64,000 bases of DNA from Nevskiaceae bacterium. Lineage in GTDB: Bacteria > Pseudomonadota > Gammaproteobacteria > Nevskiales > Nevskiaceae. Made by a program: the position numbers and the translations under genes. Positions 7,356-60,903 of the stretch are shown piece after piece. The notes beneath the pieces were generated by a model. That model was not told the DNA's origin. It searched no databases and was given only the letters and a program-made list of their open reading frames with translations. How positions within the stretch are numbered: the first letter of the stretch is position 1; every line of letters begins with the position of its first letter. The stretch is from positions 1-64,000 of the forward strand of contig SSEB01000007.1 of NCBI GenBank assembly GCA_008012115.1, in the 5' to 3' direction.

Positions 7356-7465
7356 CACCCGCTCGTCGGCCTGCGGCTCGCCAGGCAGTTATTTTTTGTC
7401 TATCGATTTAAAAATCGAGTGATAATTTATAACTTTTTGACCCGGCGACAGGCGACTAGCGGGTG
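7356..7465. repeat. 110-bp inverted element, copy 1 (divergent gap)
   Basis: The element runs from CACCCGCT to AGCGGGTG and is exactly 110 bp. GTTAT lies at element positions 33-37 and ATAAC at 74-78, enclosing a 46-nt AT-rich core with the central palindrome CGATTTAAAAATCG. The terminal arms pair over about 16 bp with one mismatch and one bulge. It is the only copy between divergent genes (rsmG and the aldehyde dehydrogenase), so it cannot be solely a terminator. Confidence 0.9.
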
Positions 7466-7545
7466 GCACGACGCAGGGGCCTTTCCGCCCGAAACCGGCT
7501 TATACTTGACCATTCGTTCGATTCTGCGACGCGTGGGGAGAAACT

Positions 7546-9000
7546 ATGAATACTGCCGTTTCCTATTTGCCGAATGCCAACAGCGGCCTGTCCAATGACG
7601 CGGAGATTCGCCGCGTGTTCGAGCGCCAGCGCGAAACCGCGCTGCGGTTGCGCTCATCGACTGCCGACGAGCGCATCGCCAAGATCAAGCGCCTGCGCGA
7701 CACCTTCCTGACGCACCAGGAAGCGTTCCGCGAAGCGGGCTACCAGGACTTCAAGAAGCCGCCGGCGGAAGTGGATCTCACCGAGGTGCTGCCGGTGGTG
7801 GCGGAAGCCAACGACGCCATGCGCAACATCCGCAAGTGGATGAAGCCCACGGGCGTGTGGCCGACCCGCATGATGATGGGCACCAAGGCCTACATCCAGT
7901 ACGAACCCAAGGGCCGCGCCTTGATCATTTCGCCGTGGAACTACCCGGTGAACCTCAGCTTCGGCCCGCTGATCTCGGCCATCGCCGCCGGCAACACCGC
8001 GATCATCAAGCCCTCGGAAATGACGCCGCACACCTCGGCGCTGATGAGCCGGGTGATCCGCGAAATCTTCAGCGAGGACGAGGTCGCCATCTTCGAGGGT
8101 GACGCCAGCGTGTCCACCACCCTGCTGTCGCTGCCCTTCGATCACATCTTCTTCACCGGCTCGCCGGCCATCGGCAAGGTGGTGATGGCCGCCGCCGCCA
8201 AGCACCTCACCAGCGTCACGCTGGAACTGGGCGGCAAGTCGCCGACCGTCATCGACGACACTGCCGACCTCGACCTCGCCGCCAAGACCATCCTCTGGGG
8301 CAAGTTCACCAACAACGGCCAGACCTGCATCGCGCCGGACCACATCTACGTGCACGAGTCGGTGAAGGCGCAATTCGTCGAGCGCTGCAAGGACGTGCTG
8401 GCCAGCACCTACGGCACCACCGGCGACGCGCAGATGAAGAGCCCCTACCTCGCCCGCGTGGTCAACCAGCGCCACACCCAGCGCATCAGCACGCTGCTGC
8501 AGGACGCCAAGCAGCGCGGCGCCAACGTGGTGTTCGGCGGCGACGTCAGCGAAAAGGACTGCTTCATCGCGCCGACGCTGATCGAGAACATCCCGGCGGA
8601 CGCCAAGATCCAGAGCGAGGAAATCTTCGGACCCCTGCTGCCGATCATCAGCTATCGCAATCTCGATGAAGTGCTGGGCGCCATCAACAGCCAGCCCAAG
8701 CCGCTGGCGCTCTACATCTGGAGCCGCAACGAGCGCAACATCGACAAGATCATGAAGAACACCAGTGCCGGCGGCACCTGCATCAACCATTGCGTCGTGC
8801 ACTTCCTGCACCTGGGCCTGCCCTTCGGCGGCGTCAACAACAGCGGCATCGGCAGCGGCCACGGCCATTTCGGTTTCAAGGCCTTCTCGCACGAGCGCGC
8901 CGTGGTGCGCACGCGCTTCATGCTCGCCAAGATGTTCTGGGCGCCGTACACCGACTGGACGATGAAGATCATCAAGCTGGTGATGAAGACCTCGGTCTGA
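7546..9000 (+). CDS. class 3 aldehyde dehydrogenase (coniferyl/fatty-aldehyde type)
   Basis: This NAD(P)-dependent dehydrogenase oxidises aldehydes to acids. The 484-residue protein has the ALDH3-like layout: IISPWNYPVNLSF for cofactor binding, FTGSPAIGKVV, the general base in LELGGKSP, the nucleophile in NNGQTCIAPD and the late motif LPFGGVNNSGIG. The C-terminal tail is hydrophobic and aromatic (KMFWAPYTDW), as in membrane-associated fatty-aldehyde dehydrogenases. Bacterial relatives act on coniferyl or long-chain aldehydes; the substrate here is not decidable. A ribosome site GGGGAGAA precedes the ATG. It is monocistronic and ends at a strong terminator. Confidence 0.9.
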   Translation: MNTAVSYLPNANSGLSNDAEIRRVFERQRETALRLRSSTADERIAKIKRLRDTFLTHQEAFREAGYQDFKKPPAEVDLTEVLPVVAEANDAMRNIRKWMKPTGVWPTRMMMGTKAYIQYEPKGRALIISPWNYPVNLSFGPLISAIAAGNTAIIKPSEMTPHTSALMSRVIREIFSEDEVAIFEGDASVSTTLLSLPFDHIFFTGSPAIGKVVMAAAAKHLTSVTLELGGKSPTVIDDTADLDLAAKTILWGKFTNNGQTCIAPDHIYVHESVKAQFVERCKDVLASTYGTTGDAQMKSPYLARVVNQRHTQRISTLLQDAKQRGANVVFGGDVSEKDCFIAPTLIENIPADAKIQSEEIFGPLLPIISYRNLDEVLGAINSQPKPLALYIWSRNERNIDKIMKNTSAGGTCINHCVVHFLHLGLPFGGVNNSGIGSGHGHFGFKAFSHERAVVRTRFMLAKMFWAPYTDWTMKIIKLVMKTSV

Positions 9001-9016
9001 CGCCGCACCTGCGTCG

Positions 9017-9045
9017 AAAAAAGGCCCGCATTGCGGGCCTTTTTG
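9017..9045. terminator. intrinsic terminator after the aldehyde dehydrogenase
   Basis: An A-run, the GC stem GGCCCGC / GCGGGCC with a short ATT loop and a TTTTT run follow the stop codon of the dehydrogenase by 17 nt. The symmetry allows termination in both directions. Confidence 0.9.
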
Positions 9046-9147
9046 TTGGTGCGGGACAGTGACGTGTGCGCGGCCGGGCGAATGGCGGTGCGCAATCGGC
9101 GTCCGCTGCGGACGCCGTGATGCTGCGGGCCTGGTCTGCTCCCGCGC

Positions 9148-10146
9148 TCAGTGATGCCGCTCGGCGCAGACCAGCTTCTCGATCTGCACGGTGACATGGG
9201 CAATGCCATGCTCGCGGCCGAGATACACCGTGATCTCCTGCGTGATGCGGTCGGCGTCGGCCTCGGCATCGACCTGTGCGTGCAGGGTCAGCATCTTCTT
9301 TTCTGGGCTCAGCATCCAGGCATGGATGTGGTGCACGTCGATGACGCCCGCCACCTGGCCCGGCAGTTCCGCTTCCAGCCGCGAGGCGTCGAAGCCCTCC
9401 GGCGCGCCCTCCAGCAGGACATGCCCGGACTGCCGCGTCAGTTGCCAGGCGCCGCGCAGGATCAGCAGGGCCACCAGCGCCGACAGCAGGGCGTCGACCT
9501 GCATCCAGCCGGTCCACAGGATGACCGCCGCCGCCGCGATGGCGGCAACCGAGCCGAGCAGGTCGCCGAGGACGTGGATCAGGGCGCCACGCATGTTGAG
9601 ATTCTCCTCGGCGCCGCCATGCAGGATGGCGAAGGCGACGAGGTTGACCAGCAGCCCGATCACCGCCACCAGCAGCATCGGCCCCGCCAGCACCGTCACC
9701 GGGTTGAACCAGCGCAGCACCGCCTCGACCACGATCCACAACGACATCGCGATCAGGGTGAAGCCGTTGACGAAGGCCGCCAGCACCTGCACGCGGTCAT
9801 AGCCATAGGAGCGGCGCGCATCGGCCGGGCGGCGGCTGATGCGGATCGCCGCCCAGGCCAGCGCCAGCGAAATGGTGTCGGTGAGCATGTGACCGGCATC
9901 GGCCAGCAGGGTCAGCGAGTGCGACAGGAGGCCGGCGACGATCTCCACCGCCATGAACAGGCCAGTGGCCAGCAGCGCCAGCAACAGCCGCCGCTCGCTG
10001 CCCGTGTGGACGTGCGCATGGCCATGGCCGTGATGGTGATGGCGGTCGTGTGCATGCTCATGATCGTGATCATGGTCGTGGCGGTGCCCATGATCGTGTG
10101 CGTGATCGTGCGGGTGGGCGTGATCGTGGGAATGTGGCGCGGTCAT
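9148..10146 (-). CDS. cation diffusion facilitator metal exporter (ZitB/CzcD type)
   Basis: This 332-residue inner-membrane antiporter exports Zn2+ or a similar divalent ion using the proton gradient. The first 48 residues are extremely His/Asp-rich, a flexible metal-binding tail. Six membrane helices follow, with paired HxxxD metal sites HMLTD in helix 2 and HVLGD in helix 5. A cytoplasmic C-terminal domain (VHHIHAWMLSPEKK) matches the ferredoxin-like fold of the family. It stands alone, with a terminator on either side. Confidence 0.95.
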   Translation of the reverse strand: MTAPHSHDHAHPHDHAHDHGHRHDHDHDHEHAHDRHHHHGHGHAHVHTGSERRLLLALLATGLFMAVEIVAGLLSHSLTLLADAGHMLTDTISLALAWAAIRISRRPADARRSYGYDRVQVLAAFVNGFTLIAMSLWIVVEAVLRWFNPVTVLAGPMLLVAVIGLLVNLVAFAILHGGAEENLNMRGALIHVLGDLLGSVAAIAAAAVILWTGWMQVDALLSALVALLILRGAWQLTRQSGHVLLEGAPEGFDASRLEAELPGQVAGVIDVHHIHAWMLSPEKKMLTLHAQVDAEADADRITQEITVYLGREHGIAHVTVQIEKLVCAERHH

Positions 10147-10204
10147 GCGGAACTGCCGGTCGAACGAGGGCGCGACGATAGCATCCTTCGAATCAGAGCC
10201 GCAT

Positions 10205-10234
10205 AAAAAACAGGGCCGGGTTGCCCCGGCCCTG
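10205..10234 (-). terminator. intrinsic terminator after the beta-helix/cytochrome gene
   Basis: A 10-bp GC stem (CAGGGCCGGG / CCCGGCCCTG, TTGC loop) is followed on the minus strand by TTTTTTA. It lies 20 nt beyond the stop of the fusion gene and insulates the CDF exporter gene. Confidence 0.9.
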
Positions 10235-10254
10235 GATGCGGACTTTGCGGTTGC

Positions 10255-13200
10255 CTACGGGCCGCTCAACGGCACCATCATGCTGATCGGCAGCGGCACG
10301 CCCTTGGCCTCGCAGGTGTTGGCGTTCGGATCGGCATAGGTGCTGACCACGCTGTTGACCCACTGGTTGACCAGGCTCACGAACTCGCTGTCCTGCACCG
10401 TGCGCGCCAGCGGCGGCATGCGGATGCCCGGCTGCACCGACGACACGCGATACGGCAGCACCGAGTGCGAGGCGTCGCCCGGCTGGATGTCGTAGTTGCC
10501 GACATCCGCCGCGCGACCCGCCGCGATCGGCGGCTTGCAGATGCCGTGGCCCTCGCCCATGTGCTTGTTGTCGGCCGCGAAGGCATCGAAGGCATCCAGT
10601 GACAGGCCGGAGTTCTGCGCGCCGCCCGCCGGGTTGTGGCAGTGCATGCAGTTCACTTCCATGAACACGCGCACGCGCTTGTGGATGTCGCCCGGCGAGT
10701 TGGGCGTCTCGCCGGTATCGCCCGGCACGTTCCACTTCGGCATGTACTCGAGCTTGGACGGATCATCCGGCAGGTCCAGCAGGCCCTTGCTCTGCAGGTA
10801 GGCGAGCTGGTTGGCGGTGCTGCCATCCTCGTAGGCGTGCAGCTTGTTCATGTTGCGCACCTTCGGGCCGATGGGCGCGGCACCCGGCTCGCGGTCATCG
10901 CCGGCGTGGCACTGCAGGCAGGCGCCGGCGTTGGGCACGCCGTAGTGATCGACCGTGCCGCTGTAGTGCAGGCGCTTGCCGTTGGCGTCGACCGCGGCCG
11001 GATCGGGATCGTCGTAGTCGTAGCTCACCGCCACCGCGTCGCCTTCCAGCTTGAGCGCCGCCTGCGTGAGATTGCCGTTGGCGTCCTTCTGCCACTCGTA
11101 GGGCAGGCCGACCCAGGCGATCTTGCCGCTGGCGTCACGGCGCTTGATCAGGAGGCGCGTCTCGATCACGTCATCCTTGCCGTTCTTGCGGAAGGCGAAG
11201 GTCTTGGCGAACACCGTGCCGACCGGGAAGCCCAGCGTGGCGGTGTTGCAGTTGTAGATCGTGATGGTGTCGCAGCGGTTGTGATCTTCGTAGGTCGCTT
11301 TCTGCACCTTGCCGCTGCCGTCCGGCGGCAGGAACAGGAAGCGGTACTTCACCGCGTAGTCGGAGAACAGGATCGTATTGAGATCGTAGGGCACGCCAAA
11401 GCCGCTGGCGCCCTGCGTCGGATCGGTGTTGCTCTTGAACAGGCCGTAGTTCGACAGCAGCGGGCAGTTGAAGCGCGCCAGCGCGTCGTAATTGATCTTG
11501 CCCGCCTCGCCGGCGGCGCAGACCTGCGCCAGCTGCGCGTCGCTGGGATGCGGATCGTTGGCGGGATTGGGCGCGAAACTGCCCAGCCGCGGCGCCAGCT
11601 GCGTGGCAATCAACCCCGCGCTCAGGGTCGGACAGTCCTGCGGCTGGTTGTGATCCACCGGCGCCAGGTTGGCGGGGTTGGTGGGGTCCGCCGTGCCGAA
11701 GTGCACGTTGAGATAGTCGTCCACCAGCTGCGTCGTGGGCTGGGTCTTCTTGAACGTGTTGCCCTGGATGCACAGGCCGTTCTCGGGCAGCTTGAGCGCG
11801 CCCTGATCGTTGAACTTCCACTTGTTGTACTTGCAGCTCGGCATCGGATCGTAGATGTAGAGATTCGGACGGCCGCGCTCGTCGGTGCGCGGCTCGTAGC
11901 GATCCACGTCCTGGGCATCCGGCTGGTTGAGCGGCACGCCGTAGTGATCCTTCGGATAGTCGTTGCAGCTGTTGGGTGCGTCCTGCGCGCCGTCCCAGAT
12001 GATCTGGGCCGACTTGCCGGCGTTCTTGGCCACCAGCACCGCCGGCAGCAGCGTGGCGTTGTTGCTCACGCACAGCGGGTTGTTGAGGTCGCTGATGCTG
12101 GGCAGGCCGGCGACGATGCCACCCAGGGGATCGGGCAGCGGTGTCGGCAGCGCCACCGGCAGGCCATTGAGCAGGCCGTGGCAGCTGTCCTTGGACAGGT
12201 CCGGCGTCTGCGGGCTGCCGCCGTTGTCGGTGAAGGTGTTGTTGTAGACGTGGATGCCTTCGGGGAAGAAATCGTAGTTGGTGGCCGGCTCGTTGGCGTC
12301 GGCGAGACCGTAGTTGACGATGATCAGGCCCGAGGTGTTGTTGTTGTAGACATCGTTGTCATGCAATTCCAGCTGGTCGGAGGCCAGCACCAGCATGCCG
12401 GTGCCCGAGGGCACGTCGCCGACGATGGCGCCGCGCGGCGCGAAGCTCGGCACGTTGTTGTTGTAGGACCTGTTGTAGTGCACGACGTTCTTCTCGCCGA
12501 ACTGCGCGCGGCCCGGCAGATCGAACACCAGGAAGCCGCCGACGTTGTCGTGCGCCACGTTGTGGATGAACTCGGCACGGTAGGTGTTCTCGAACTCGAA
12601 ACCGGCGACGTTGTGATACGCCTCGGTGAACTGCACGAGGATGTCGTTGGACTGGCCAACGTAGACGCCGGCATCCGATGAACCCACCGAGATCGAGTTC
12701 TCGATGAAGATATGGTGGCTCAGCACCGGGTAGAACGCGTAGGAGCCGTTGTTGACCCAGCTCTTCATGCTGGCGTCGTAGTTGGGGCACGTGGGCCGCG
12801 TCGGGCACTGATCGTCGGTATTGCTCCAGCCGACCTTGACGCCGCGCACGGTGACGTAGTCGGAGCGGAAGATGCGCAGGCCATTGCCCGGCGCGTCGTA
12901 CAGCGTCAGGTCCTGCACGACGATGCCGGTGACGCGGTTGATGTTGATGCCGTCCTGCGAGTCGCTGTTCTTGAACGACAGCACGGTCTTGTCGATGCCG
13001 GCACCCTTGATGGTGATGCCGCGCTTGCCGGTCAGCGTCAGGCCGGTGGTGAAGTCGAATTCACCCGCGCAAAACTGGATGGTGTCGCCCTCGTGGGCGT
13101 CGAACACCGCGATCAGCGCGTCCTTCTGGAAGGTGTTCGGGTCGCAGATCAGGTAGGTCTTGCCGCCGCCCCCCTTGCCCGCGGCAAAAGCCGCTGCGGC

Positions 13201-13314: not shown

Positions 13315-13452
13315 GCCCGCTCCCCCTGAACGATATTTGGAATGCCGAACCGCTCTGGGGCGGCCTTGTAATGCGCGGGAAGCTAACAGACGAGCCGGGT
13401 TGCGGCAGTAGTAAAACCGCGCCGGGGCTCATAAAAATCCCGCAAAGGCTGG

Positions 13453-13562
13453 CACCCGCTCTGCGGTCTCGCACCGTGACGTGAGTTATTAATTATCTAT
13501 TTATTTTAAATTCTATAGATTAATTGTCACAACAACTCGCACGCACCCCGGCAGAGCGGGTG
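13453..13562. repeat. 110-bp inverted element, copy 2
   Basis: Exactly 110 bp between CACCCGCT and AGCGGGTG, with a perfect 12-bp terminal pair (CACCCGCTCTGC) extended outward by GG/CC. GTTAT is at positions 33-37; the right partner is degenerate (GTCAC). It lies in the 293-bp gap between the inositol-phosphatase gene and the fusion cytochrome gene, both on the minus strand. Confidence 0.9.
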
Positions 13563-13608
13563 CCACCACTCCAGGTAACGGGCGCCGTCGCGCGGCGTTG
13601 ACGCGCCT

Positions 13609-14415: not shown

Positions 14416-14496
14416 GGAGCTAACCTTCGGTAGGGGGCGTCAATGATACCGGCCCTCTACTGCAAACGCAGTGCAACGTCGCATCGGTGGCGCGCG

Positions 14497-14502
14497 TACA
14501 AT
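14497..14502 (+). promoter_or_regulatory. -10 element of the btuB transcript
   Basis: TACAAT lies 8 nt before the first riboswitch base (14511), so transcription would begin right at the aptamer. No strong -35 is seen, which may mean an activator or a weak promoter. Confidence 0.5.
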
Positions 14503-14510
14503 GCGCGCGC

Positions 14511-14665
14511 CACAGGTGTCTCGCCGCGAGGCGAGGTGAAACGGGAAGCGAGTGAAACGCTCGCACTGCCCCCGCAACGGTAAATGGGAAGAAGCGGCCA
14601 CACGCCACTGGAGCGATCCGGGAAGGCGCCGCGGAAAAGCCCATGAGTCCGGAGACCGGCCTGTG
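14511..14665 (+). ncRNA. cobalamin riboswitch aptamer
   Basis: The leader has the complete adenosylcobalamin aptamer pattern: closing stem CACAGG (14511) with CCTGTG (ending 14665), GAAACGGGAAGCGAGTGAAA, then CACTGCCCCCGCAACGGTAA, the B12 box GCCACTGG (14604-14611), GGGAAGGCG and GAGTCCGGAGACC. High cobalamin would repress the downstream btuB. The strand and spacing fit: aptamer end to ATG is about 50 nt. Confidence 0.95.
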
Positions 14666-14683
14666 TCCACCCACCGTCACAAG

Positions 14684-14708
14684 CACCACGGGGACGTGGT
14701 GAGGGAGA
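14684..14708 (+). promoter_or_regulatory. riboswitch expression platform at the btuB ribosome site
   Basis: A 7-bp hairpin (CACCACG, GGGA loop, CGTGGTG) directly abuts the ribosome-binding sequence AGGGAGA. Upstream CCACCGTCAC (14671-14680) can pair alternatively with GTGGTG. No T-run follows, so control is probably at translation initiation rather than termination. This is inferred from the sequence only. Confidence 0.6.
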
Positions 14709-14714
14709 CCCTTC

Positions 14715-16529
<1,815 letters not shown>

Positions 16530-16566
16530 ACCTGCGCCGGGCAGCGGCAGCGGCGCCCGGCGACGT

Positions 16567-16676
16567 CACCCGCTGTCGATGGTTTGCCTGGGAAAATCGT
16601 TATTAATTATCTATCAAATTTTTATTTGATATATATTTTTAAACAACTCTTCCCGGCCAACTATCGACAGCGGGTG
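16567..16676. repeat. 110-bp inverted element, copy 3 (best terminal pairing)
   Basis: Exactly 110 bp. The terminal arms pair perfectly over 14 bp (CACCCGCTGTCGAT with its complement) and continue with few mismatches to about 22 bp. GTTAT is at 33-37 and TAAAC at 74-78. The left arm has TTGCCTGGGAAAATC, shared with the reverse complements of copies 6 and 7. It separates btuB from the adenosyltransferase gene. Confidence 0.92.
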
Positions 16677-16722
16677 GCGCTTTTTCCGGCTGTTACACTG
16701 CAAAAAATCATCGGCACTGCAC

Positions 16723-17262
16723 ATGGGTCATCGTCTCAGCAAGATCGTCACCCGCACCGGCGACCAGGGCACCACGGGCCTGGCCACCGGCGACCGCGTC
16801 GAGAAATCCTCGGCACGCATCCACGCCATCGGCGAGGTGGACGAACTCAACTGCCATCTCGGCGTGGTGCTGGCGCATGCGTTGCCGGAGACGGTGCGTG
16901 CGCCGCTGGCGCGCATCCAGAACGAGTTGTTCAACCTCGGCGGCGAACTGGCGATGCCGCCGGCGATGCTGATCGGCGAGGCCGACGTGGCGCGGCTGGA
17001 GGCGGACGTGGAGGCGCTCAACGCGCACCTGCCGCCGCTGAAGGAATTCGTGCTGCCCGGCGGCAATGCGCCGGCCGCAGCCGCGCATCTCGCGCGCGCG
17101 GTGGCGCGGCGCGTCGAGCGCGCGCTGTGGACGCTCAACGCCGAAGCGCCACTCAACGAGTTCGCACCGCGATATGCCAACCGCCTGTCCGACCTGCTGT
17201 TCGTGATCGCGCGCACGCTGGCGCGCGCCGACGGCGGCCAGGAAGTGAGCTGGTCGCGCTGA
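16723..17262 (+). CDS. PduO-type ATP:cob(I)alamin adenosyltransferase
   Basis: This enzyme moves the adenosyl group of ATP onto cob(I)alamin to make coenzyme B12. The 179-residue protein begins with the family signature KIVTRTGDQGTTGLATGDRV and has the conserved region RAVARRVERALWTLN and NRLSDLLFVIARTL. It follows btuB, so the pair covers B12 import and activation. No riboswitch precedes it; the 193-bp gap is mostly the 110-bp element copy 3. No clear ribosome site is seen before the ATG at 16723. Confidence 0.93.
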   Translation: MGHRLSKIVTRTGDQGTTGLATGDRVEKSSARIHAIGEVDELNCHLGVVLAHALPETVRAPLARIQNELFNLGGELAMPPAMLIGEADVARLEADVEALNAHLPPLKEFVLPGGNAPAAAAHLARAVARRVERALWTLNAEAPLNEFAPRYANRLSDLLFVIARTLARADGGQEVSWSR

Positions 17263-28074: not shown

Positions 28075-28184
28075 CACCCGCTCTGCCGGCAATAATCCGG
28101 TAGAGTGTTATTTAATATTTAACGAATTTAAATTCGTTAAATATTTTAAAACATCTTGTCGCCGCTTTCGGTGCAGAGCGGGTG
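28075..28184. repeat. 110-bp inverted element, copy 4 (near-perfect AT core)
   Basis: Exactly 110 bp with a 12-bp terminal pair (CACCCGCTCTGC). The 46-nt core is an almost perfect AT palindrome centred on AATTTAAATT. GTTAT is at 33-37 and AAAAC at 74-78. It lies between the converging M16 protease and small membrane-protein genes. Confidence 0.92.
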
Positions 28185-32525: not shown

Positions 32526-32635
32526 CACCCGCTCCCGACCGGAGCGCCGGAAAGCTTGTTACCTAATATTTAATGAAAAATGAATCGATCAATATTCATT
32601 AACAGCTCTGCCGACTCCGCCGGACACGGCGGGTG
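32526..32635. repeat. 110-bp inverted element, copy 5 (most diverged)
   Basis: Exactly 110 bp from CACCCGCT to GGCGGGTG; the altered right end still pairs by a T-G wobble. GTTAC is at 33-37 and TTAAC at 74-78. The arms pair with bulges rather than continuously. It starts 12 nt after the envC stop and separates envC from ctpA. Confidence 0.85.
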
Positions 32636-38146: not shown

Positions 38147-38256
38147 CACCCGCTCTCCCGCCCAGCGTCGATAGAATTGTTATGTTTTATTTATTGAATT
38201 TAAATTTAATAAATAAAATATAACATATTACCCAGGGAAAATGCCCCGAGCGGGTG
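38147..38256. repeat. 110-bp inverted element, copy 6
   Basis: Exactly 110 bp. The core is a long AT palindrome with GTTATG and CATAAC-like ends (GTTAT at 33-37, ATAAC at 74-78) and centre GAATTTAAATTT. The base just outside the ends pairs T-A here, unlike other copies. The right arm contains CCCAGGGAAAATG. It splits the DUF971 gene from the Old Yellow Enzyme-hslU cluster. Confidence 0.92.
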
Positions 38257-48680: not shown

Positions 48681-48790
48681 CACCCGCTGTTGGCAAAAAC
48701 AGTATTTGAATCGTTATATTTTATTTATAGATTAAAAATTTGATAAATAAAATATAACGACTTTCCCAGGCAATGGCCGCCGAGCGGGTG
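48681..48790. repeat. 110-bp inverted element, copy 7
   Basis: Exactly 110 bp. Terminal arms pair over 10 bp counting GC/GC just outside (GCCACCCGCT with AGCGGGTGGC). GTTAT at 33-37 and ATAAC at 74-78 bound a core with TATTTTATTTAT and its complement. Its reverse complement shares ATTGCCTGGGAAAGTCGTTA with copy 3 at the same offset. It separates the VOC gene from the actin-like gene. Confidence 0.92.
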
Positions 48791-48882
48791 GCGGCTTTTC
48801 CACCTTCTGCGGCGTGTCGGCGGCTTTGACCGCCCCGGGTGGCCATGCTAGAAAACCTCACGAAAACAAGCGGGAGTGCACC

Positions 48883-49893
48883 GTGAAAGTGCTGGGCGCG
48901 GATATCGGTTTCGGCTACACGAAGGCCACGGACGGGCGGCAGTTCCAGATCTTCAAGTCGGTGGTCGGCGAGGCCACCGAAATCCAGTTCGCCGAGGCGC
49001 TGCTGCCCGGTGCCGCCGCCCAGCCGCGTCATATCGAGTACGGCGGCCAGGGTTATTTCGTCGGCGAGCTGGCGGAAACCCAGAGCCGCGGCCGCGGTTT
49101 CACGCTGGACCAGAACCAGTTCCTGATCCAGTACGCCAAGACGCTGGCGCTGGTGGCGCTGGCGCCGTTCGCTGACGACGGCGACCCGGTGCGCCTGGTC
49201 ACCGGCCTGCCGATCAATTTCTTCCGCCGCCACAAGGACGGCCTGACCACGCTGCTGCAGAACCGCCACCAGGTGACGCTGGTGCTGCCCAATGGCGAGC
49301 GCAAGGACAAGACCATCCTGATCGACCGTGTGCGCGTGATCCCGCAGCCCTTCGGCAGCATGTTCAACCTGATGCTCAACGACTTCGGCAAGCCGTCGAG
49401 CCAGCGCTTTCTCGGCGAGAAGATCGGCATCATCGACATCGGCTTCCGCACCGCCGACTACACAATCAGCGACAAGACCAAGTTCTCCGAGCGCGGCAGC
49501 ATGAGCAGCGACTCCGGCATCTCCGCCGCCTACACCGCCATCGCCAACCTGCTGCAGGAAAAGAGCGGCGTGAGCATCGAGCTGTACCGGCTCTACGAGG
49601 CGGTGACGCGGGGCAACATCAAGATCAAGGGCAAGCGCTTCGATCTCACCGGCGTGGTGCAGCAGGCGTTCCAGCAACTGGCCACGCGCATCGCCACCGA
49701 GGTCAACCGCCTGTGGGCCGATGACTGGGACATCGATGCCATCGTCATCACCGGCGGCGGCGGCGCGGCCCTGGCGCCGCTGCTGACGCCGCTGCTGGAA
49801 GGCGAGGTGCTGCCGATGCCGTCCGACACCGACGCGCGCCTCAACAACGTCACCGGCTACTGGAAATACGGCAACCACCTCTGGCCGGCCTGA
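48883..49893 (+). CDS. ParM/Alp-type actin-like ATPase, orphan
   Basis: This 336-residue protein has the actin-fold nucleotide motifs: phosphate-1 GADIGFGYTKATDG, phosphate-2 IGIIDIGFRTADYTI, and adenosine motif DAIVITGGGGAALAPLL. It resembles plasmid segregation ParM/Alp and archaeal Ta0583-type proteins rather than MreB. It starts at GTG 48883 with GGGAG 6 nt before. No ParR-like adaptor gene or iteron centromere is adjacent, and it is surrounded by chromosomal genes, so a plasmid role is unlikely. Function is unknown. Confidence 0.85.
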   Translation: MKVLGADIGFGYTKATDGRQFQIFKSVVGEATEIQFAEALLPGAAAQPRHIEYGGQGYFVGELAETQSRGRGFTLDQNQFLIQYAKTLALVALAPFADDGDPVRLVTGLPINFFRRHKDGLTTLLQNRHQVTLVLPNGERKDKTILIDRVRVIPQPFGSMFNLMLNDFGKPSSQRFLGEKIGIIDIGFRTADYTISDKTKFSERGSMSSDSGISAAYTAIANLLQEKSGVSIELYRLYEAVTRGNIKIKGKRFDLTGVVQQAFQQLATRIATEVNRLWADDWDIDAIVITGGGGAALAPLLTPLLEGEVLPMPSDTDARLNNVTGYWKYGNHLWPA

Positions 49894-51716: not shown

Positions 51717-51753
51717 GTTTGCGGCTCCTTGATGAACGGCGGTTTCATTATAT

Positions 51754-51770: not shown

Positions 51771-51787
51771 TCAATGAGAATGACGGC

Positions 51788-52210: not shown

Positions 52211-52211
52211 C

Positions 52212-52622: not shown

Positions 52623-52677
52623 CCTCGAAGGCGGGCATACCGCTTACAATCCGGCGTCCCTCTTCCAACAGGCTCTC

Positions 52678-54204: not shown

Positions 54205-54216
54205 TCGCGATACCTC

Positions 54217-54251
54217 AAAAAAAAGAAACGGGCCGCATTGCGGCCCGTTTC
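54217..54251 (-). terminator. terminator of the TetR-fadE unit
   Basis: An 11-bp stem (AAACGGGCCGC / GCGGCCCGTTT) followed by TTCTTTTTTTT on the minus strand lies 18 nt past the fadE stop. It can also catch the YjgR transcript from the other side. Confidence 0.9.
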
Positions 54252-54268
54252 CGTTACAGCGCCTGCCA

Positions 54269-56749
54269 TCAGGCGACGCGTGCGCGCTGGTCTTCCATCG
54301 CCGGCGTATCGTCGGCATCCAGTGCCGAGTAGTCGCCGGCGAGATAGGCCTTGGGAAAATCGTCGGTCATGATCACGTCGAAACGCACCTGGTCGTAGGC
54401 TGCCGCTGCATTGGCCTCGGCCACCGTCAGCAGCTTGCGCTGCACCGCGTCTGCCAGTTTGTCGGCCACGCTCTCGCCGCTGAGCTCTCCCTTGGCCGCG
54501 AGGCGATAGAACTTGGCGTAGGCCGGTTCGGTCTCCTGCGACACCGCCCAGGCATGCTCCATGCGGCCGATGGGATCGTCCTTGCCGCCGTTCTTGAACA
54601 CCAGCCAGGAAATGCGGTCGCGCACATCGGTCTGCTCCAGGATCAGGTCGGCGATCTTCGCATTCAGGTCGTCGCTGACCGGGCGGAAGTGATTGCCGAT
54701 CGGGAACACCACTGCGCGCATCACCAGTCGCGCCCACGCCACCGGGAAATTGGCGATGAACTCCTCGAAGGCCTTGGCGATTTCATGGAGCGCGTGGTCC
54801 AGCGCCCAGCGCGCATGCGCCAACTCGGCCTCGGACTTGCTGCCTTCCAGGTAATACTTGACCACCGACGACGCAATGTAGAGCTGCGACAGTACGTCAC
54901 CGAGGCGCGCCGACAGACGCTCCTTGAACTTGAGCTTGCCGCCAAGCACGCCCATGGTCAGGTCGGAAACGAAGGCCAGCGCCGACGAGAAGCGCTCCAG
55001 GTCGCGGAAGTACGGCGCCATCTCGCCGCTCACCGGGCTGCTGGCCAGGCGCGCACCGGTCAGCGCCAGCGTCATCGAGCGCACCGCACGGTTGACCGAA
55101 AAGCCGATGTGGCCGAACAGCAACTGATCGAACTTCACCAGATCGTTTTCGCGGGCCGCTTCCATCTCGGGGAACACGTACTCATGGCAGCGGATCGCGC
55201 CCTGGCCGAAGATCATCAGGTTGCGGGTGAGGATATTGGCGCCCTCGACGGTAATCGCCACCGGCGCCGCCTTGTAGCCGGTCGCCATGAAGTTGCGCGG
55301 GCCCTGCTGGATGCCGCGCCCGGCCATCACGTCCATGCCGTCGGTGACGATTTTCCGCATCAGCTCGGTCATGTGGTACTTGGCGATGGCGGTCACCACC
55401 GACGGCGCGCAGTGATCGACCGCCGAGGCGGTGAGCACGCGCATCGCTTCCAGCGTGTAGCCGAATCCGGCGATGCGGCCGGTGGCCTCCTGCACGCCTT
55501 CGAACTTGCCGATCGAGACCTTGAACTGACGACGCATGCGCGCATACGAGCCGGTGGTGCGGTAGGCGATCTGCCCGGCCGCGGCCGACAACGCCGGCAG
55601 CGAGATGCCACGACCCGCCGACAGGCACTCGACCAGCATGCGCCAGCCCTTGCCGGCCATCGCCGGGCCGCCGATGATCCAGTCAATCGGGATGAACACG
55701 TCGCGGCCCTGGATGGTGCCGTTCATGAAGGCCGCGCCCGGGTAGTGGCGACGGCCGATGTGCATGCCCTTGTGCTTGGCCGGCACCAGGGCGCAGGTGA
55801 TGCCGTAGTCGCTCTTGTCCTTGTCGCCGAGCAGTCCCTCGGGATCGCGCAGCTTGAAGGCCAGACCGACCACCGTGGCGACCGGCGCCAGGGTGATGTA
55901 GCGCTTGGAGAAATTCAGCTTGAGGCCTAGTACCCGCTGGCCTTCGTGCTCGCCGTAGCAGACCACGCCACTGTCGGGCATGGCGGTGGCGTCGGAGCCC
56001 ACCTCAGGGCCGGTAAGACCGAAACAGGGAATCTCGCTGCCGTCGACGAGGCCGGGCAACCACTTCTTCTTCTGCTCATCGGTGCCGTAGTGCATCAACA
56101 GTTCGCCGGGGCCCAGCGAGTTGGGCACCATCACCGTCACCGCCATGGCGATGGACTTGGTGGCGAGCTTGGTCACCACCGCCGACTGCGCATTGGCGGA
56201 AAAACCCAGACCGCCGTATTCCTTCTTGATCAGCATCGACAGGAACTTCTTCTCGCGGATGAACTTCCACACTTCCGGCGGCAGATCCTTGCGCTCGAAC
56301 TCGATGTGCCAGTCGTCGCACATGCGGCACAGCTCCTCGCACTCGTTATCGAGAAAGGACTGCTCTTCCGGCGTCAGCGCGGTGTACTTGAAGTCCAGCA
56401 GCTTCTTCCAGTCCGGACGACCGCGGAACATTTCCGCCTCCCACCAGACATCGCCGGCTTCGAGGGCCTCACGTTCGGTGCTGGACATTTCCGGCAGCAC
56501 TTTCTTGAACACGCCGAGCACCGGGCCGGTGATCACCGCGCGCCGCAGCGGCTTGAGATTCAGCAGCAGGGCCAGCGCGACGTAGACGGCGCCGCCGACC
56601 GTGAACGCGGTCGCGCCGACCGCACCCGTCGCCTTGAGCGCGATCAGCAGCAGTCCGAACGCCGCGGTCCACAGCAGCAGGGGGGCGCCGGCATAGGCCA
56701 GCACCCAGAACGCTGCGATGGCGAGGAGGACGATAGTGGAAGTGGACAT
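54269..56749 (-). CDS. fadE: acyl-CoA dehydrogenase FadE
   Basis: FadE does the first, FAD-dependent step of fatty acid beta-oxidation. At 826 residues it has the long form with an N-terminal membrane pair (IVLLAIAAFWVLAYAGAP and LLLWTAAFGLLLIALK), a central catalytic part (FGLTGPEVGSDATAMPD, IEGANILTRNLMIFGQG-like) and a DUF1974-type C-terminus. It lies 24 nt downstream of the TetR-family gene, so it is probably in the same operon and autoregulated with it. Confidence 0.95.
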   Translation of the reverse strand: MSTSTIVLLAIAAFWVLAYAGAPLLLWTAAFGLLLIALKATGAVGATAFTVGGAVYVALALLLNLKPLRRAVITGPVLGVFKKVLPEMSSTEREALEAGDVWWEAEMFRGRPDWKKLLDFKYTALTPEEQSFLDNECEELCRMCDDWHIEFERKDLPPEVWKFIREKKFLSMLIKKEYGGLGFSANAQSAVVTKLATKSIAMAVTVMVPNSLGPGELLMHYGTDEQKKKWLPGLVDGSEIPCFGLTGPEVGSDATAMPDSGVVCYGEHEGQRVLGLKLNFSKRYITLAPVATVVGLAFKLRDPEGLLGDKDKSDYGITCALVPAKHKGMHIGRRHYPGAAFMNGTIQGRDVFIPIDWIIGGPAMAGKGWRMLVECLSAGRGISLPALSAAAGQIAYRTTGSYARMRRQFKVSIGKFEGVQEATGRIAGFGYTLEAMRVLTASAVDHCAPSVVTAIAKYHMTELMRKIVTDGMDVMAGRGIQQGPRNFMATGYKAAPVAITVEGANILTRNLMIFGQGAIRCHEYVFPEMEAARENDLVKFDQLLFGHIGFSVNRAVRSMTLALTGARLASSPVSGEMAPYFRDLERFSSALAFVSDLTMGVLGGKLKFKERLSARLGDVLSQLYIASSVVKYYLEGSKSEAELAHARWALDHALHEIAKAFEEFIANFPVAWARLVMRAVVFPIGNHFRPVSDDLNAKIADLILEQTDVRDRISWLVFKNGGKDDPIGRMEHAWAVSQETEPAYAKFYRLAAKGELSGESVADKLADAVQRKLLTVAEANAAAAYDQVRFDVIMTDDFPKAYLAGDYSALDADDTPAMEDQRARVA

Positions 56750-56773
56750 GGCAGTCTCCAGAACAGAACAGTC

Positions 56774-57424
56774 TTACGGGGTACCCGCACGGCGCATGGG
56801 AACGACGTGCGGATGCTCGGGCGCGCCGTCTGCCGCCACCTCGCGCGGGATCAGCGTCGTAATCATCAATCTCAGGTATTCGTTGAACTCGGCGCCCTGC
56901 GGCATCGCGTCCGGCGTGTCGCGACGGATCTGCAGGTTGCCCATGAAGGTGGCGTAGGCAAAGCGCGCCCAGTGCCGCGCCTGGCTTTCGCTGAAGCCGA
57001 GGTCGCGGTAACAGTCGCGCAGGTAATTCATCCGCGCCTCGGAAACGCGCCGCACGTATTCGTTGACCACGGGATGGTCCTCGCCCGCCGCAATCGCCAG
57101 GTACAGCCGGCCGGCGCGGTAACTGGCGTTGGCCTGCTTGAACACGTTGACGATGCGTTCATAGGGATCGGAGGTCGGCTCGATGCGCGCGAGGATGTCG
57201 ACCGTCTCACTCTTTTCCCAAAGGTCCAACGCGGCGCGGATCAGTTCGCCGCGGCTGTTGAAATGCCAGTAGAAGCTGCCCTTGGTCACGCCCAGCTTGC
57301 GCGCCAGCGGCTCCACCGCCACGGCATCGAGTCCACCGGTGGCGATGGCCTCTAGCGCGGCATCGGCCCAGGCATTGGCGGTCAGGTTCTGTCGGGCTTC
57401 GCTGGCAGCGGATGGGGCGGGCAT
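56774..57424 (-). CDS. TetR-family regulator of fadE
   Basis: The 216-residue protein has an N-terminal helix-turn-helix (VEPLARKLGVTKGSFYWHFNSRGELIRAALD) and a variable ligand domain. It starts at ATG 57424. Three similar palindromes (57446, 57478, 57563) lie upstream, the first overlapping its own promoter region, so autoregulation is likely. The ligand is presumably an acyl-CoA, since fadE follows, but this is inference. Confidence 0.92.
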   Translation of the reverse strand: MPAPSAASEARQNLTANAWADAALEAIATGGLDAVAVEPLARKLGVTKGSFYWHFNSRGELIRAALDLWEKSETVDILARIEPTSDPYERIVNVFKQANASYRAGRLYLAIAAGEDHPVVNEYVRRVSEARMNYLRDCYRDLGFSESQARHWARFAYATFMGNLQIRRDTPDAMPQGAEFNEYLRLMITTLIPREVAADGAPEHPHVVPMRRAGTP

Positions 57425-57445
57425 GGTCGGCTCGGGTCGTGCAGG

Positions 57446-57464
57446 CCATACGCCTGCGTATTGG
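57446..57464. promoter_or_regulatory. TetR operator candidate 1
   Basis: CCATACGC-CT-GCGTATTGG is a palindrome with one extra T. It is 22 nt upstream of the regulator start. The same pattern CCATACGC-NN-GCGTA recurs twice in this gap. Confidence 0.7.
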
Positions 57465-57477
57465 GCGCGAACTCTAA

Positions 57478-57495
57478 CAATACGCACACGTATGG
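57478..57495. promoter_or_regulatory. TetR operator candidate 2
   Basis: CAATACGC-AC-ACGTATGG is a variant of the same inverted repeat, 13 bp after candidate 1, so the two centres lie about 32 bp or three helical turns apart. Confidence 0.65.
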
Positions 57496-57562
57496 TTCAA
57501 GCCCGCGGCGCAAATCTGCTGTATTAGATTTTGTTTTTCAAAGATATTTTTTAGATGATCGG

Positions 57563-57582
57563 CCATACGCCAGCGTACCTGG
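57563..57582. promoter_or_regulatory. TetR operator candidate 3
   Basis: CCATACGC-CA-GCGTACCTGG is the third copy, on the far side of an AT-rich stretch (about 57518-57555). It lies nearer the divergent acylase gene, so the regulator may control that gene too. Confidence 0.6.
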
Positions 57583-57714
57583 ACCGTGGCCGCAGCCGTT
57601 AGCCTGCGATGGACGTGGGCCGATCGGGGCACCGCCGGCGCACCGGCGGTGCCCTAGCGCGCGGAGGCGGCTATAGTGACGACAGCGTCATAAAAAACAT
57701 TTCGAGGAGAACGC

Positions 57715-60156
57715 ATGTTTCGTCTACGCCTGGCCGGCCTCGCGCTGGCAGTATTGCTTGTCGGCGCCTGCAGCCGCAGTTCCACGCCCACGGCCCAGAG
57801 CAGCGGTCATTACGACGTCGTCCTGACGCGCACCACGCTCGGCATCCCGCACATCAAGGCCAATGATTTCGGCAGCATGGGCTACGGCTATGGCTACGCC
57901 TTCGCCGAGGACAATCTCTGCGTGCTGCAGGAGGATCTTCTGACCATCCGCGGCGAGCGCGCCAAGTACCTCGGCCGCAACGGCAGCTACACCATCGTGC
58001 CCAACGGCGTCACCGCCGATAACGTCACCAGCGACTTTTTCTGGAAGTTCGTCGCCACCGACCAGGTGGTGAACAACCTGCGCGCCAAGGCACTGCCGGA
58101 ATTGCGCGATGCCACCAGCGGGTTTGTCGCTGGCTACAACCGCTATATCCGCGAGCTCAAGGCCGGCCAGCACCCCGGCCGCCATGCCGGCTGTGCGGAC
58201 GCCGCCTGGCTGTCGCCGATCACCGACGCCGACATGTATCGCCGCTATTTCCGGCTGGCGATCATCGCCAGCTCATCGGCGCTGATCGGTCCGATCGTCG
58301 ACGCGCAGCCGCCCTCGGGCCTTGCCGCCAAGGCGAAGGCGCCTTCGAAAACGCAGATCGCGCAGGCGCTGCAATCGTCGACCAACCCGCTGCGGAACCT
58401 CGGCAGCCATGCCGCCTTCGCGAGCAACATGTACGCCTTCGGCAAGGACGCCACCGCCAACGGCACGCCCCTGCTCTGGGGCAACCCGCATTTTCCGTGG
58501 ACCGGCACCGAGCGCCTGTATCTCGCCCACGCCACCATCCCCGGCAAGCTCGACATCATGGGGGCTTCGCTCTACGGCGTACCGGCGGTGCTGATCGGCT
58601 TCACTGACCAATTCGCCTGGAGCCACACCGTCTCCACCGCCTGGCGCTTCACGATTTACGAACTGACGCTGGACCCCACCGATCCCACCAAGTACCTCTA
58701 CGACGGCGCCTCGCGCGCGATGACCGCCGTGCCGGTCGCCATCGATATCAAGGAGAGCGATGGCAGCATCAGCCACGCGACCAAGACGCTGTACCGCTCG
58801 CACTACGGGCCGATGCTGGCGATCAGCGCCAGCGGCGTGCCCATCCTGGGCTGGACCAACGCCAAGGCCTACACCCTGCGCGATGCCAATGCCGAGAACG
58901 ACCGCCTGATCAACCAGTTCGCGCTCTGGGACCAGGCCAAGTCGCTGGATGAATTCAAGGCCCTGCACAAGAGCGTGCTCGGCGTGCCCTGGGTCAACAC
59001 CGTCGCCACCGGCCCTGGCGGCAAGGCGTACTACGGCGATGTCACCGTGGTGCCCAACGTCACCGACGCGCAGAACCAGCAGTGCGCCTCGGCGCTGCAG
59101 CCGGCCATCCAGCAACTCGATCCGGGCCTGCCGCTGCTCGATGGTTCGCGCTCCGCCTGCGAGTGGGGCACCGACGCCGACGCGCCCGCACCCGGCATCT
59201 TCGGCCCCTCGCACCTGCCGACGCTGGAGCGTGACGACTTCGTGCACAACTGCAACGACAGCTACTGGTTGACCAACCCGGCGCAGCCGCTTACCGGCTA
59301 CGCCCGCATCATCGGCGACGAGAACACCGCGCGAACGCTGCGCACGCGCCTGTGCATCCTGCAGGCCCAGCGCCGCCTCGCCGGCACCGATGGACGTCCC
59401 GGTAACAAGATGGACCAGGCGACGCTGGAGGACATCGGCCTGTCCAGCCAGATCTACTCGGCCGAACTGGCGCAGAGCGGTGTCATCGCCAGCCTCTGCG
59501 CCCTGCCCAGCGTGCCGAGCAGCAGCGGCCCGGTGAACACCGCCGACGCCTGCGCGGCACTGAAAAACTGGGACGGTCACGACAACCTCGACTCCAAGGG
59601 CGGCCATCTCTGGCGCGAGTTCTGGCGCAACGTCTCCGGCGGGCCGCTGCCAGTGCAGCTCGCCGCGCTCAACAACAGCTACTTTCTGACGCCGTTCTCC
59701 AGCAGCGACCCGGTCAACACGCCCAACACGCTCAACGTGGCGCTGCCGACGGTGCAAACCGCCTTCGGCGACGCCATCAACACGGTCACCGCCTCGGGCC
59801 ATCCCTTCGACGCGACGCTGGGCTCGCTGCAGCATCCCTGCTGCATCGACAAGAGCATCCCGATCTTCGGCGGCGAGGATTTCGAGGGCGCCTTCACCGT
59901 GGTCGACGGCACCAACAAGCTCGACGCCGACGGCTATCGCGTGCCCTACGGCAACAGCTATATCCAGGCCGTGACCTGGGACGCCAACGGCGTGGTCGCG
60001 GACGCTTTCGTCACTTACTCCGAGTCCACCGACCCGGCCAATCCGCACTTTTCCGACTACACCAAGGAGTACTCGGCCAAGCGCTGGCACCGCCTGCCCT
60101 TCCACGCCGCCGACGTGCAGGCGCAGCAGATCAGCCAGCAGCACCTGACCGAGTAG
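57715..60156 (+). CDS. penicillin-acylase-family (AHL-acylase-like) lipoprotein
   Basis: The 813-residue protein is an Ntn-hydrolase that should self-cleave into two chains. It has a lipobox-like VGAC (Cys19), an alpha-chain part (residues 20-230) and a beta chain beginning at a Ser: candidates are S231 in GSHAAF and S237 in ASNMYAFG, followed by LLWGNPHFPW typical of PvdQ/aculeacin-acylase relatives. Substrates in the family are N-acyl homoserine lactones and acyl-peptides. A strong ribosome site GAGGAG precedes the ATG. It may share regulation with the TetR-fadE unit. Confidence 0.85.
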   Translation: MFRLRLAGLALAVLLVGACSRSSTPTAQSSGHYDVVLTRTTLGIPHIKANDFGSMGYGYGYAFAEDNLCVLQEDLLTIRGERAKYLGRNGSYTIVPNGVTADNVTSDFFWKFVATDQVVNNLRAKALPELRDATSGFVAGYNRYIRELKAGQHPGRHAGCADAAWLSPITDADMYRRYFRLAIIASSSALIGPIVDAQPPSGLAAKAKAPSKTQIAQALQSSTNPLRNLGSHAAFASNMYAFGKDATANGTPLLWGNPHFPWTGTERLYLAHATIPGKLDIMGASLYGVPAVLIGFTDQFAWSHTVSTAWRFTIYELTLDPTDPTKYLYDGASRAMTAVPVAIDIKESDGSISHATKTLYRSHYGPMLAISASGVPILGWTNAKAYTLRDANAENDRLINQFALWDQAKSLDEFKALHKSVLGVPWVNTVATGPGGKAYYGDVTVVPNVTDAQNQQCASALQPAIQQLDPGLPLLDGSRSACEWGTDADAPAPGIFGPSHLPTLERDDFVHNCNDSYWLTNPAQPLTGYARIIGDENTARTLRTRLCILQAQRRLAGTDGRPGNKMDQATLEDIGLSSQIYSAELAQSGVIASLCALPSVPSSSGPVNTADACAALKNWDGHDNLDSKGGHLWREFWRNVSGGPLPVQLAALNNSYFLTPFSSSDPVNTPNTLNVALPTVQTAFGDAINTVTASGHPFDATLGSLQHPCCIDKSIPIFGGEDFEGAFTVVDGTNKLDADGYRVPYGNSYIQAVTWDANGVVADAFVTYSESTDPANPHFSDYTKEYSAKRWHRLPFHAADVQAQQISQQHLTE

Positions 60157-60262
60157 GAATCCTCCTGCGCGGCGGCGCGTCTGCCGCGCGGCGACAGCCG
60201 CCGCGGCAGGCGCCATAATCCGATGCCGGGCAGTGACGCCCGGCATCGCCTCGAGGATCGCC

Positions 60263-60724
60263 ATGCGCCTTCGCGCCATCACCGTGTTGTCGCTGCTCGC
60301 CTGCGCTGGCCTGGCGCAGGCCGAGGTCTACAAGTGGGTAGACGACAAGGGCAAGACTCACTACAGCGACCACGAACCGGCCGCGAGTCTCGGCGGCGCG
60401 CCGAACGCGCAGATCGTCGACGGCATTCCGATGGCGGTGCAGCAGAAAATCCGCGACGCGGCGATGCAGGGCATCGACGTCGACCACATCAAGGGCAGCG
60501 AGCGCAACTGCCAGATCACCGGCAAGGCCGCCTCGCGCGCGCTGCTGCTGGCCTTCATCCGCCAGCTCAACGCCGCCGGCATCGGCGACTTGAAAAACGA
60601 ACTGCCGCCCGAGAGCGGCCCCACCGACGCCAAGGGCCGCGTGATCGCGCACGGACCCGAGCGCTTCGACCTGCATTACCTGCTCGACAACGACCTGCTG
60701 CAGTCGCTCAAGGCGCCGCGCTGA
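60263..60724 (+). CDS. exported DUF4124-domain protein
   Basis: This 153-residue protein has a signal peptide (VLSLLACAGLAQA) followed at once by the DUF4124 signature EVYKWVDDKGKTHYSDHEP. The rest is unassigned. Such proteins are common, uncharacterised and periplasmic. The start ATG at 60263 has GAGG 7 nt before. It is followed by a 309-bp gap. Confidence 0.85.
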   Translation: MRLRAITVLSLLACAGLAQAEVYKWVDDKGKTHYSDHEPAASLGGAPNAQIVDGIPMAVQQKIRDAAMQGIDVDHIKGSERNCQITGKAASRALLLAFIRQLNAAGIGDLKNELPPESGPTDAKGRVIAHGPERFDLHYLLDNDLLQSLKAPR

Positions 60725-60793
60725 GACGCACGCCGCCGGCCGCTCCCCACGGTCATGGCCGGTTTCGGGGCCGCTCCAAGGGCTGAACCCCCG

Positions 60794-60903
60794 CACCCGC
60801 TGTCCTCGCCGGGCTCCTCGTGGACGTGATAAATTATTTTATGTTTTAAAATTTAGTTAATGCTTTAAAACAGTCTGGTGCACGCGATTGGCAACAGCGG
60901 GTG
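60794..60903. repeat. 110-bp inverted element, copy 8
   Basis: Exactly 110 bp with a 10-bp terminal pair (CACCCGCTGT with ACAGCGGGTG). GTGAT at 33-37 and AAAAC at 74-78. The 46-nt core has the centre GTTTTAAAATTT. It fills most of the 309-bp gap (60725-61033) between the DUF4124 and unknown genes; I see nothing else in the gap. Confidence 0.9.

What the first reader, a model, noticed from the sequence alone, without database searches (positions are those of the whole stretch)
7356..60903. Family of eight 110-bp symmetrical intergenic elements with invariant length and geometry
Copies at 7356-7465, 13453-13562, 16567-16676, 28075-28184, 32526-32635, 38147-38256, 48681-48790 and 60794-60903 were read base by base. 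Each is exactly 110 bp from CACCCGCT to AGCGGGTG (one copy ends GGCGGGTG). Taken as 16 inverted 55-bp halves, CACCCGC is present in 16/16, the next T in 15/16, and GT at half-position 33-34 in 16/16. Positions 1-32 form the outer arm and 33-78 an AT-rich core bounded by GTTAT/ATAAC. Much of the rest differs between copies. No copy touches a gene and density is about one per 8 kb. Constant length with low sequence identity is unlike a decaying MITE and suggests a structural rule (cruciform, RNA hairpin or a protein that measures both ends). I know no described family with this 32-46-32 plan.
Basis: seen in the sequence. Interest (0 to 1): 0.93.

Follow-up and report, generated by a model that had tools for sequence, protein, structure and literature searches.

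The report
Evenly spaced DNA-wrapping chromosome stations
A bacterium of the genus Stenotrophobium carries more than 300 copies of an exactly measured 110-base mirror-symmetric DNA site, placed between genes about every 8,000 bases, which likely serve as docking stations where a protein complex would wrap the DNA and organise the chromosome.

Summary
All eight copies are exactly 110 bp; the genome holds 336 end pairs, 60 relatives hold 0-4 each, chance level. In 863 kb, 103 of 105 profile hits are 110 bp, two are 109. (1) The site continues outside the 110 bp: both flanks carry A/T peaks every 10.6 bp, phase-locked to the element, strong to -45 (0 of 2000 shuffles), the signature of DNA wrapped on protein. 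(2) Spacing is far too even for chance: means 8.4 and 8.1 kb, CV 0.51 and 0.32, null about 0.9. (3) The arms do not covary within a copy, so no RNA hairpin or long cruciform; only half-positions 45-50 match. In those 863 kb: no clear target duplication, no recent copies, one orphan half-site. In S. rhamnosiphilum, 4 of 4 testable diverged AT cores lie at junctions that carry an element here; 14 of 18 such junctions have none. Best reading: evenly spaced docking sites for a DNA-wrapping complex, gyrase-like; the protein is unidentified.

The parts
7356..7465 (.). element copy 1, between rsmG (minus strand) and an aldehyde-dehydrogenase-like gene; AT island at the same junction in S. rhamnosiphilum and three Solimonas
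13453..13562 (.). element copy 2
16567..16676 (.). element copy 3 (one of the 2 of 103 copies typed with the TTTTSCCTRGGGRAAA motif in both arms)
28075..28184 (.). element copy 4
32526..32635 (.). element copy 5 (right end GGCGGGTG)
38147..38256 (.). element copy 6, arm motif on the right only
48681..48790 (.). element copy 7, arm motif on the right only
60794..60903 (.). element copy 8
7356..7363 (+). left anchor box CACCCGCT of copy 1 (example)
   Evidence: profile; CACCCGC in 193 of 206 halves
7388..7433 (.). 46-bp AT-rich core of copy 1 (example)
7458..7465 (-). right anchor box of copy 1 (example)
7311..7355 (.). left phased flank of copy 1 (example; the signal is seen in the average of 206 flanks, not on one copy)
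7466..7510 (.). right phased flank of copy 1 (example; same caveat)
38226..38240 (-). one-sided arm motif of copy 6
48760..48774 (-). one-sided arm motif of copy 7

Best explanation
The repeats are dyad-symmetric, fixed-geometry DNA sites, present more than 300 times and spaced about 8 kb apart between genes, that likely act as docking stations for a DNA-wrapping protein complex (DNA gyrase is the best-fitting known enzyme, though not proven) and would pin or relieve supercoils station by station. Shown: exact length, symmetry, absence of arm pairing, helically phased flanks, even spacing, and some gene-junction positions shared with relatives. Inferred: a protein reads the two CACCCGCT anchors (centres 102 bp apart) and the GT and AT contacts at half-positions 33-34 and 43-44; the DNA outside bends around it with A/T inward every 10.6 bp; the 46-bp AT-rich middle is the flexible or easily unwound segment; a dimer may read the matched half-sites at 45-50; an optional second factor may sit on the one-sided TTTTSCCTRGGGRAAA motif. 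Untested: the identity of the protein, and whether the 8-kb intervals are supercoil domains.
For: Length: 103 of 105 profile hits are 110 bp; best score on reversed sequence not above 0. Flanks: A/T power at 10.5 bp in -45..-5 is 0.142 against a null maximum of 0.012 (0 of 2000 circular shifts), weaker at -86..-46 (0.0096 vs 0.0087); random intergenic anchors reach at most 0.013 in 2000 draws; amplitudes 0.119, 0.117, 0.121 and similar phase on motif-bearing, opposite and motif-less sides; also present in 41 flanks in predicted coding sequence; the flank profile correlates with that of 15 diverged islands of S. rhamnosiphilum (r 0.45, p 0.009 for the outer 40 bp). Spacing: CV 0.51 (72 copies) and 0.32 (25 copies), below each of 5000 random draws from roomy junctions. 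Tandem copies sit nearer the upstream gene's 3' end (median 31 bp) than the next start (78 bp). Place: 4 of 4 testable diverged islands (scores 33-51, reversed-sequence control up to 32) fall at junctions with an element, 0 at the 108 junctions without. Gyrase: E. coli gyrase sites are symmetric with a 36-bp centre and two 47-bp flanks of 10.75-bp GC periodicity (passages of PMC6379681); other bacterial gyrases show 10-11 bp periodicity (passages of PMC12324340). A 910-codon frame with six GyrA C-terminal repeat matches is present.
Against: The phased region reaches about 100 bp from the dyad (weakly further), beyond the 65 bp of the published gyrase motif; near-invariant CACCCGCT and GT boxes are unlike that degenerate motif; gyrase is universal but the full site was found in none of 368 other class genomes, so a dedicated sequence-specific protein is probably needed. 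By eye the A/T phase shifts by a few bp across CACCCGCT, so one continuous wrap is not certain. 14 of 18 element junctions matched in S. rhamnosiphilum have no island at my cut-off (two of these hold a weaker one, scores 18 and 19), so the sites are not indispensable there. Signals at -127..-87 are mixed. No binding, expression or contact data exist here.
Confidence: 0.55

Rival explanations
1. An old mobile repeat family (MITE- or REPIN-like), spread by a transposase and now frozen, whose fixed length is the transposase's requirement.
For: Hundreds of intergenic inverted-repeat copies in one lineage; a REP-associated tyrosine transposase gene (NCBIfam NF047646, 84.7 bits, cut-off 80) is present, 1.1 kb from one element; two near-identical neighbouring copies exist on contig C3.
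Against: No clear target duplication in 103 copies (largest excesses: 8 observed vs 5.1 expected at 4 bp, 2 vs 0.6 at 5 bp; none of 6-12 bp); highest pairwise identity among 103 copies is 83 of 110 bases; one unpaired half-site in 863 kb; most frequent 16-mer there has 15 copies; even spacing, whereas REPINs fit a random model in extragenic space, with common compensatory changes and singlets (passages of PMC3116915); no element flanks the transposase gene.
Confidence: 0.15
2. Two-way transcription insulators or terminators between transcription units.
For: 104 of 105 copies are intergenic and tandem copies lie close to gene 3' ends; some diverged AT cores in relatives adjoin terminator-like hairpins, judged by eye.
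Against: 18 of 104 intergenic copies lie between divergent genes; arms do not pair; no Rfam family over its gathering score at the eight window copies; termination does not predict even 8-kb spacing or phased flanks running into coding sequence.
Confidence: 0.12
3. A dedicated recombination, replication or segregation site (Xer/dif-, matS- or parS-like) used many times.
For: Symmetric site with fixed spacing between boxes and an AT-rich middle; even distribution along the contigs read.
Against: Known sites of this kind are one to a few dozen per chromosome and much shorter (recalled, no call).
Confidence: 0.08
4. Supercoil-driven cruciforms extruded from the AT core.
For: Core half-positions 35-55 match within copies more than shuffled (0.633 vs 0.604; 0 of 1000 column shuffles and 2 of 1000 whole-arm shuffles as high; also on 60 copies).
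Against: The excess is confined to positions 45-50 (0.566 vs 0.468, 0 of 1000); 35-44 and 51-55 show none, which suits a dimer's half-sites better than a stem.
Confidence: 0.05

Closest known systems
E. coli gyrase sites (Topo-Seq motif, Mu strong gyrase site, BIME-2)
   Same: Dyad symmetry, central segment flanked on both sides by A/T-G/C periodicity of 10-11 bp; intergenic repeats that bind gyrase exist (BIME-2) (passages of PMC6379681)
   Different: Here near-invariant boxes at fixed places, an AT-rich 46-bp centre, phasing to about 100 bp from the dyad, hundreds of evenly spaced copies
REPINs (REP doublets, linked to RAYT transposases)
   Same: Inverted conserved ends with a less conserved spacer of set length, hundreds of extragenic copies; a RAYT gene is present
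   Different: No arm covariation, one unpaired half in 863 kb, no abundant 16-mer, even spacing, RAYT gene not flanked by the element
MITEs
   Same: Short, inverted terminal boxes, multi-copy, no gene
   Different: No clear target duplication, no near-identical copies and no length decay in the part read; some positions shared with other species
Nucleosome positioning signal (recalled; compared to the gyrase motif in PMC6379681)
   Same: A/T periodicity of about 10.5 bp over some 150-200 bp
   Different: Bacterium; anchored by sequence-specific boxes; one site per 8 kb

Membership tests
Gyrase strong sites | symmetric site with 10-11 bp A/T-G/C periodicity in both flanks | tested here: met
Gyrase strong sites | about 130-bp extent (36-bp centre plus two 47-bp flanks) | tested here: not met
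   phasing strong to -45, i.e. about 100 bp from the dyad, weaker to -86
Gyrase strong sites | gyrase binds and cleaves it | not testable with these tools
   needs Topo-Seq or footprinting
REPIN | long hairpin with compensatory changes across the arms | tested here: not met
   60 copies; 103 copies
REPIN | random placement in extragenic space | tested here: not met
REPIN | RAYT transposase in the genome | tested here: met
   one gene
REPIN | RAYT gene flanked by the repeat | tested here: not met
   nearest element 1.1 kb away across another gene; a pair of 16-nt repeats, 81% alike and possibly chance, lies beside it instead
MITE | target-site duplication | tested here: not met
   103 copies, 2-12 bp; small excess at 4 and 5 bp (8 vs 5.1, 2 vs 0.6)
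MITE | groups of near-identical recent copies | tested here: not met
   103 copies in 863 kb, maximum 83 of 110; one close neighbouring pair lies outside that part, C3:65967 and C3:67354
MITE | transposase-bearing element with the same ends | tested here: inconclusive
   one unpaired half-site in 863 kb of 3.25 Mb; the rest was not scanned for halves
Structured RNA / terminator | base-paired arms or a known RNA family | tested here: not met
   miRNA-model hits far below their cut-offs at copy 3 probably reflect its palindrome
Chi-like recombination signal | over-represented short motif on its own | tested here: not met
   CACCCGCT: 20 in the window, 15 in elements, 5 elsewhere; 4.0 expected; window only

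The most novel reading that the evidence does not exclude
A bacterial chromosome is organised by hundreds of hard-wired, nucleosome-like wrapping stations placed at near-regular 8-kb intervals: a fixed-geometry cis element that sets topological domains by sequence rather than by transcription.
Probability: 0.42. Interest if true: 0.96.

Novelty: categorically new. Interest (0 to 1): 0.87.

Why it matters
Bacterial supercoil domains of about 10 kb are usually treated as having no fixed sequence boundaries (recalled). A genome with several hundred equal-geometry, evenly spaced, helically phased sites would make that directly testable: candidate boundaries can be read from sequence, deleted one by one, and used to fish out the protein. 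It would also be a class of intergenic repeat kept by selection on spacing and shape rather than by copying.

Tried and rejected
MITE: no clear target duplication, no recent copies, no length decay in the part read. REPIN: RAYT present but arms, singlets, 16-mers and spacing do not fit. RNA hairpin or known RNA. Whole-core cruciform: matching limited to positions 45-50. Chi: AGCGGGTGG resembles E. coli Chi (letters recalled) but the box is not over-represented outside elements in the window. Orientation by gene direction: the one-sided motif is on the upstream-gene side in 13 and the downstream side in 22 of 35 tandem cases, no clear link. Bidirectional-promoter reading of the core: considered by eye only. 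H-NS as the core binder: no Pfam H-NS match in the window's genome, S. rhamnosiphilum or G027, though one in G004, which has core-like islands. Phage and plasmid collections: no match with one copy (copy 3) as query; viral contigs: none with the strict pattern. Literature: eight searches of the held open-access library; in the rows listed I saw no paper describing this family; subscription papers are not held, so absence from print is not claimed.

Limits: the model search of relatives scored only 34 candidates per genome, so absence elsewhere is weak; it gave matches in 8 of 100 genomes, of which G087 and G090 are distant and probably chance. The alignment behind the model and searches uses 60 of 101 usable copies: I left out eight low-scoring or imperfect ones and all copies after locus L030. 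Reversed-sequence control scores for core-only hits reach 32 (G001), 36 (G027) and 35 (G004), so many weaker hits listed there may be chance. Results against my reading: 14 of 18 matched junctions lack the island in the sister species; Solimonas terrae (L129) shows no island in its locus; far-flank signals at -127..-87 are mixed (A/T p 0.001, A p 0.0005, T p 0.80, A-minus-T p 0.12); other genera gave only 2 usable islands each.

Full report
Observation. Chance gives 0.01 such end pairs in the window. The genome (3.25 Mb, 24 contigs) holds 336 pairs of CACCCGCY...RGCGGGTG within 96-124 bp, with 0 for the reversed pattern, 341 for the CACCCGCW...WGCGGGTG variant at 104-114 bp and 312 for the strict form with GT and AC at the core edges. 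Sixty relatives have 0-4 of the first pattern, as many as the reversed control (0-4). In 863 kb read in full, 88 of 102 end pairs up to 400 bp long are exactly 110. A half-site profile finds 105 elements there: 88 exact-ended, 15 of 110 bp with an imperfect end, two of 109 bp; the best score on reversed sequence is not above 0.

Anatomy. A two-component fit shows that one arm, and only one, carries TTTTSCCTRGGGRAAA at half-positions 17-31 in 59 of 103 copies, both in 2, none in 42, where independence predicts 9.6 with both. Its side is not clearly tied to gene direction in 35 tandem cases.

Wrapping signal. Outside the element A/T content rises and falls with a period of 10.6 bp, in phase with the element, on both sides. 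Power at 10.5 bp for -45..-5 is 0.142 against a null maximum of 0.012 in 2000 circular shifts; at -86..-46 it is 0.0096 against 0.0087; further out it is mixed. Random intergenic anchors never exceed 0.013. The signal is present in 41 flanks that are predicted coding sequence (0.090 against a null maximum of 0.056) and has the same amplitude (0.119, 0.117, 0.121) on motif-bearing, opposite and motif-less sides. That is how DNA bent around protein looks, as in gyrase sites, whose published motif has two 47-bp flanks of 10.75-bp period around a 36-bp centre (PMC6379681, passages read).

Not a hairpin. Arms pair no better than shuffled partners in 60 aligned copies (44.7% vs 44.1%), and arm identity within copies is 0.337 vs 0.345 in all 103. 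The core does show within-copy matching (71.5% vs 68.5%, 0 of 500, 60 copies), but in all 103 copies it is confined to half-positions 45-50 (0.566 vs 0.468, 0 of 1000; 35-44 and 51-55 none). This suits a dimer reading matched half-sites.

Placement. With a simple gene caller, 104 of 105 copies are intergenic: 65 tandem, 21 convergent, 18 divergent; 12 overlap a predicted gene end slightly. Spacing is strikingly even: 72 copies on 599 kb, mean 8374 bp, CV 0.51; 25 copies on 200 kb, mean 8061 bp, CV 0.32. Random choices among intergenic places give about 0.9 and never came as low in 2000 draws or in 5000 draws from roomy junctions. Intervals under 3 kb number 4 (19.6 expected) on the first contig and 0 (7.4 expected) on the second. 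The two long gaps on the first contig (25 and 27 kb) are lower in GC (0.615 and 0.637; contig 0.664) and have 13 and 8 intergenic regions of at least 100 bp, so they do not lack room; acquired DNA is a possible cause (inference).

Relatives. The window's genome shares its genus with G001, which a contig of identical length shows to be Stenotrophobium rhamnosiphilum GT1R17. G001 has one exact-ended copy, 108 bp long, and diverged AT cores bounded by GT and AC; among 32 core hits in 800 kb the commonest core length is 45 (13), then 46 (8), and hits below about 33 overlap the reversed control. Where both flanking genes could be matched, 4 junctions have an element here and a core there, 14 an element only, 0 a core only, 108 neither. 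At the junction of window copy 1 an AT island is also found in three Solimonas loci (L126, L127, L169), while 28 loci L128-L155 (Nevskia, Stagnimonas, Panacagrimonas, Solimonas terrae and others) hold no AT island at all. The flank phasing of 15 G001 islands correlates with that of the window's genome. So the core appears older than the anchor boxes, and at least some positions are inherited. The strict form was found in none of 368 other class genomes and in no viral contig.

Interpretation. A site of fixed geometry, symmetric, helically phased well beyond its boxes, evenly spaced and partly inherited in place is best read as a station for a DNA-wrapping complex with a chromosome-scale role. 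The roughly 8-kb interval is close to the 10-kb supercoil domains named in the abstract of PMC3420936 (seen in the listing). Gyrase fits the periodic flanks but not the invariant boxes nor the longer reach, so I hold gyrase specifically at about one in three and a dedicated architectural protein as the equal or better alternative. Three HU/IHF-type genes and a GyrA with its C-terminal repeats are present; no H-NS family member was found.

Mobile-element readings fail most tests done here, though an ancient mobile origin cannot be excluded. The pattern is strong and is not explained by the families compared.

Noticed in passing
window 14497-14678: Cobalamin riboswitch (Rfam RF00174, 114 bits); a cob(I)yrinic acid adenosyltransferase domain is encoded at 16723-17259.
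   Followed up: no
window 48814-49890: Actin-like protein (Pfam ALP_N and MreB-like_C) directly right of element copy 7; possibly a segregation filament.
   Followed up: no
G000:C20:52427-53176 (L018:12427-13176): Single REP-associated tyrosine transposase gene, overlapping the next gene, with a pair of similar 16-nt repeats beside it.
   Followed up: partly
G000:C20:144168-169503 and 536997-564160: The two long element-free gaps are lower in GC; proteins scanned there include an RND-type pump, a porin, a TonB receptor, an MMPL protein, a monooxygenase-like protein and a cellulase.
   Followed up: partly
G000:C3:65967-66075 and 67354-67463: Two nearly identical neighbouring copies, one 109 and one 110 bp, probably a local duplication.
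   Followed up: no
L112, L101, L115: By eye, AT cores in S. rhamnosiphilum, a second genus and Solimonas sit directly beside terminator-like hairpins.
   Followed up: no
window genome and S. rhamnosiphilum: No match to the Pfam H-NS family, although two of four other relatives searched have one.
   Followed up: no
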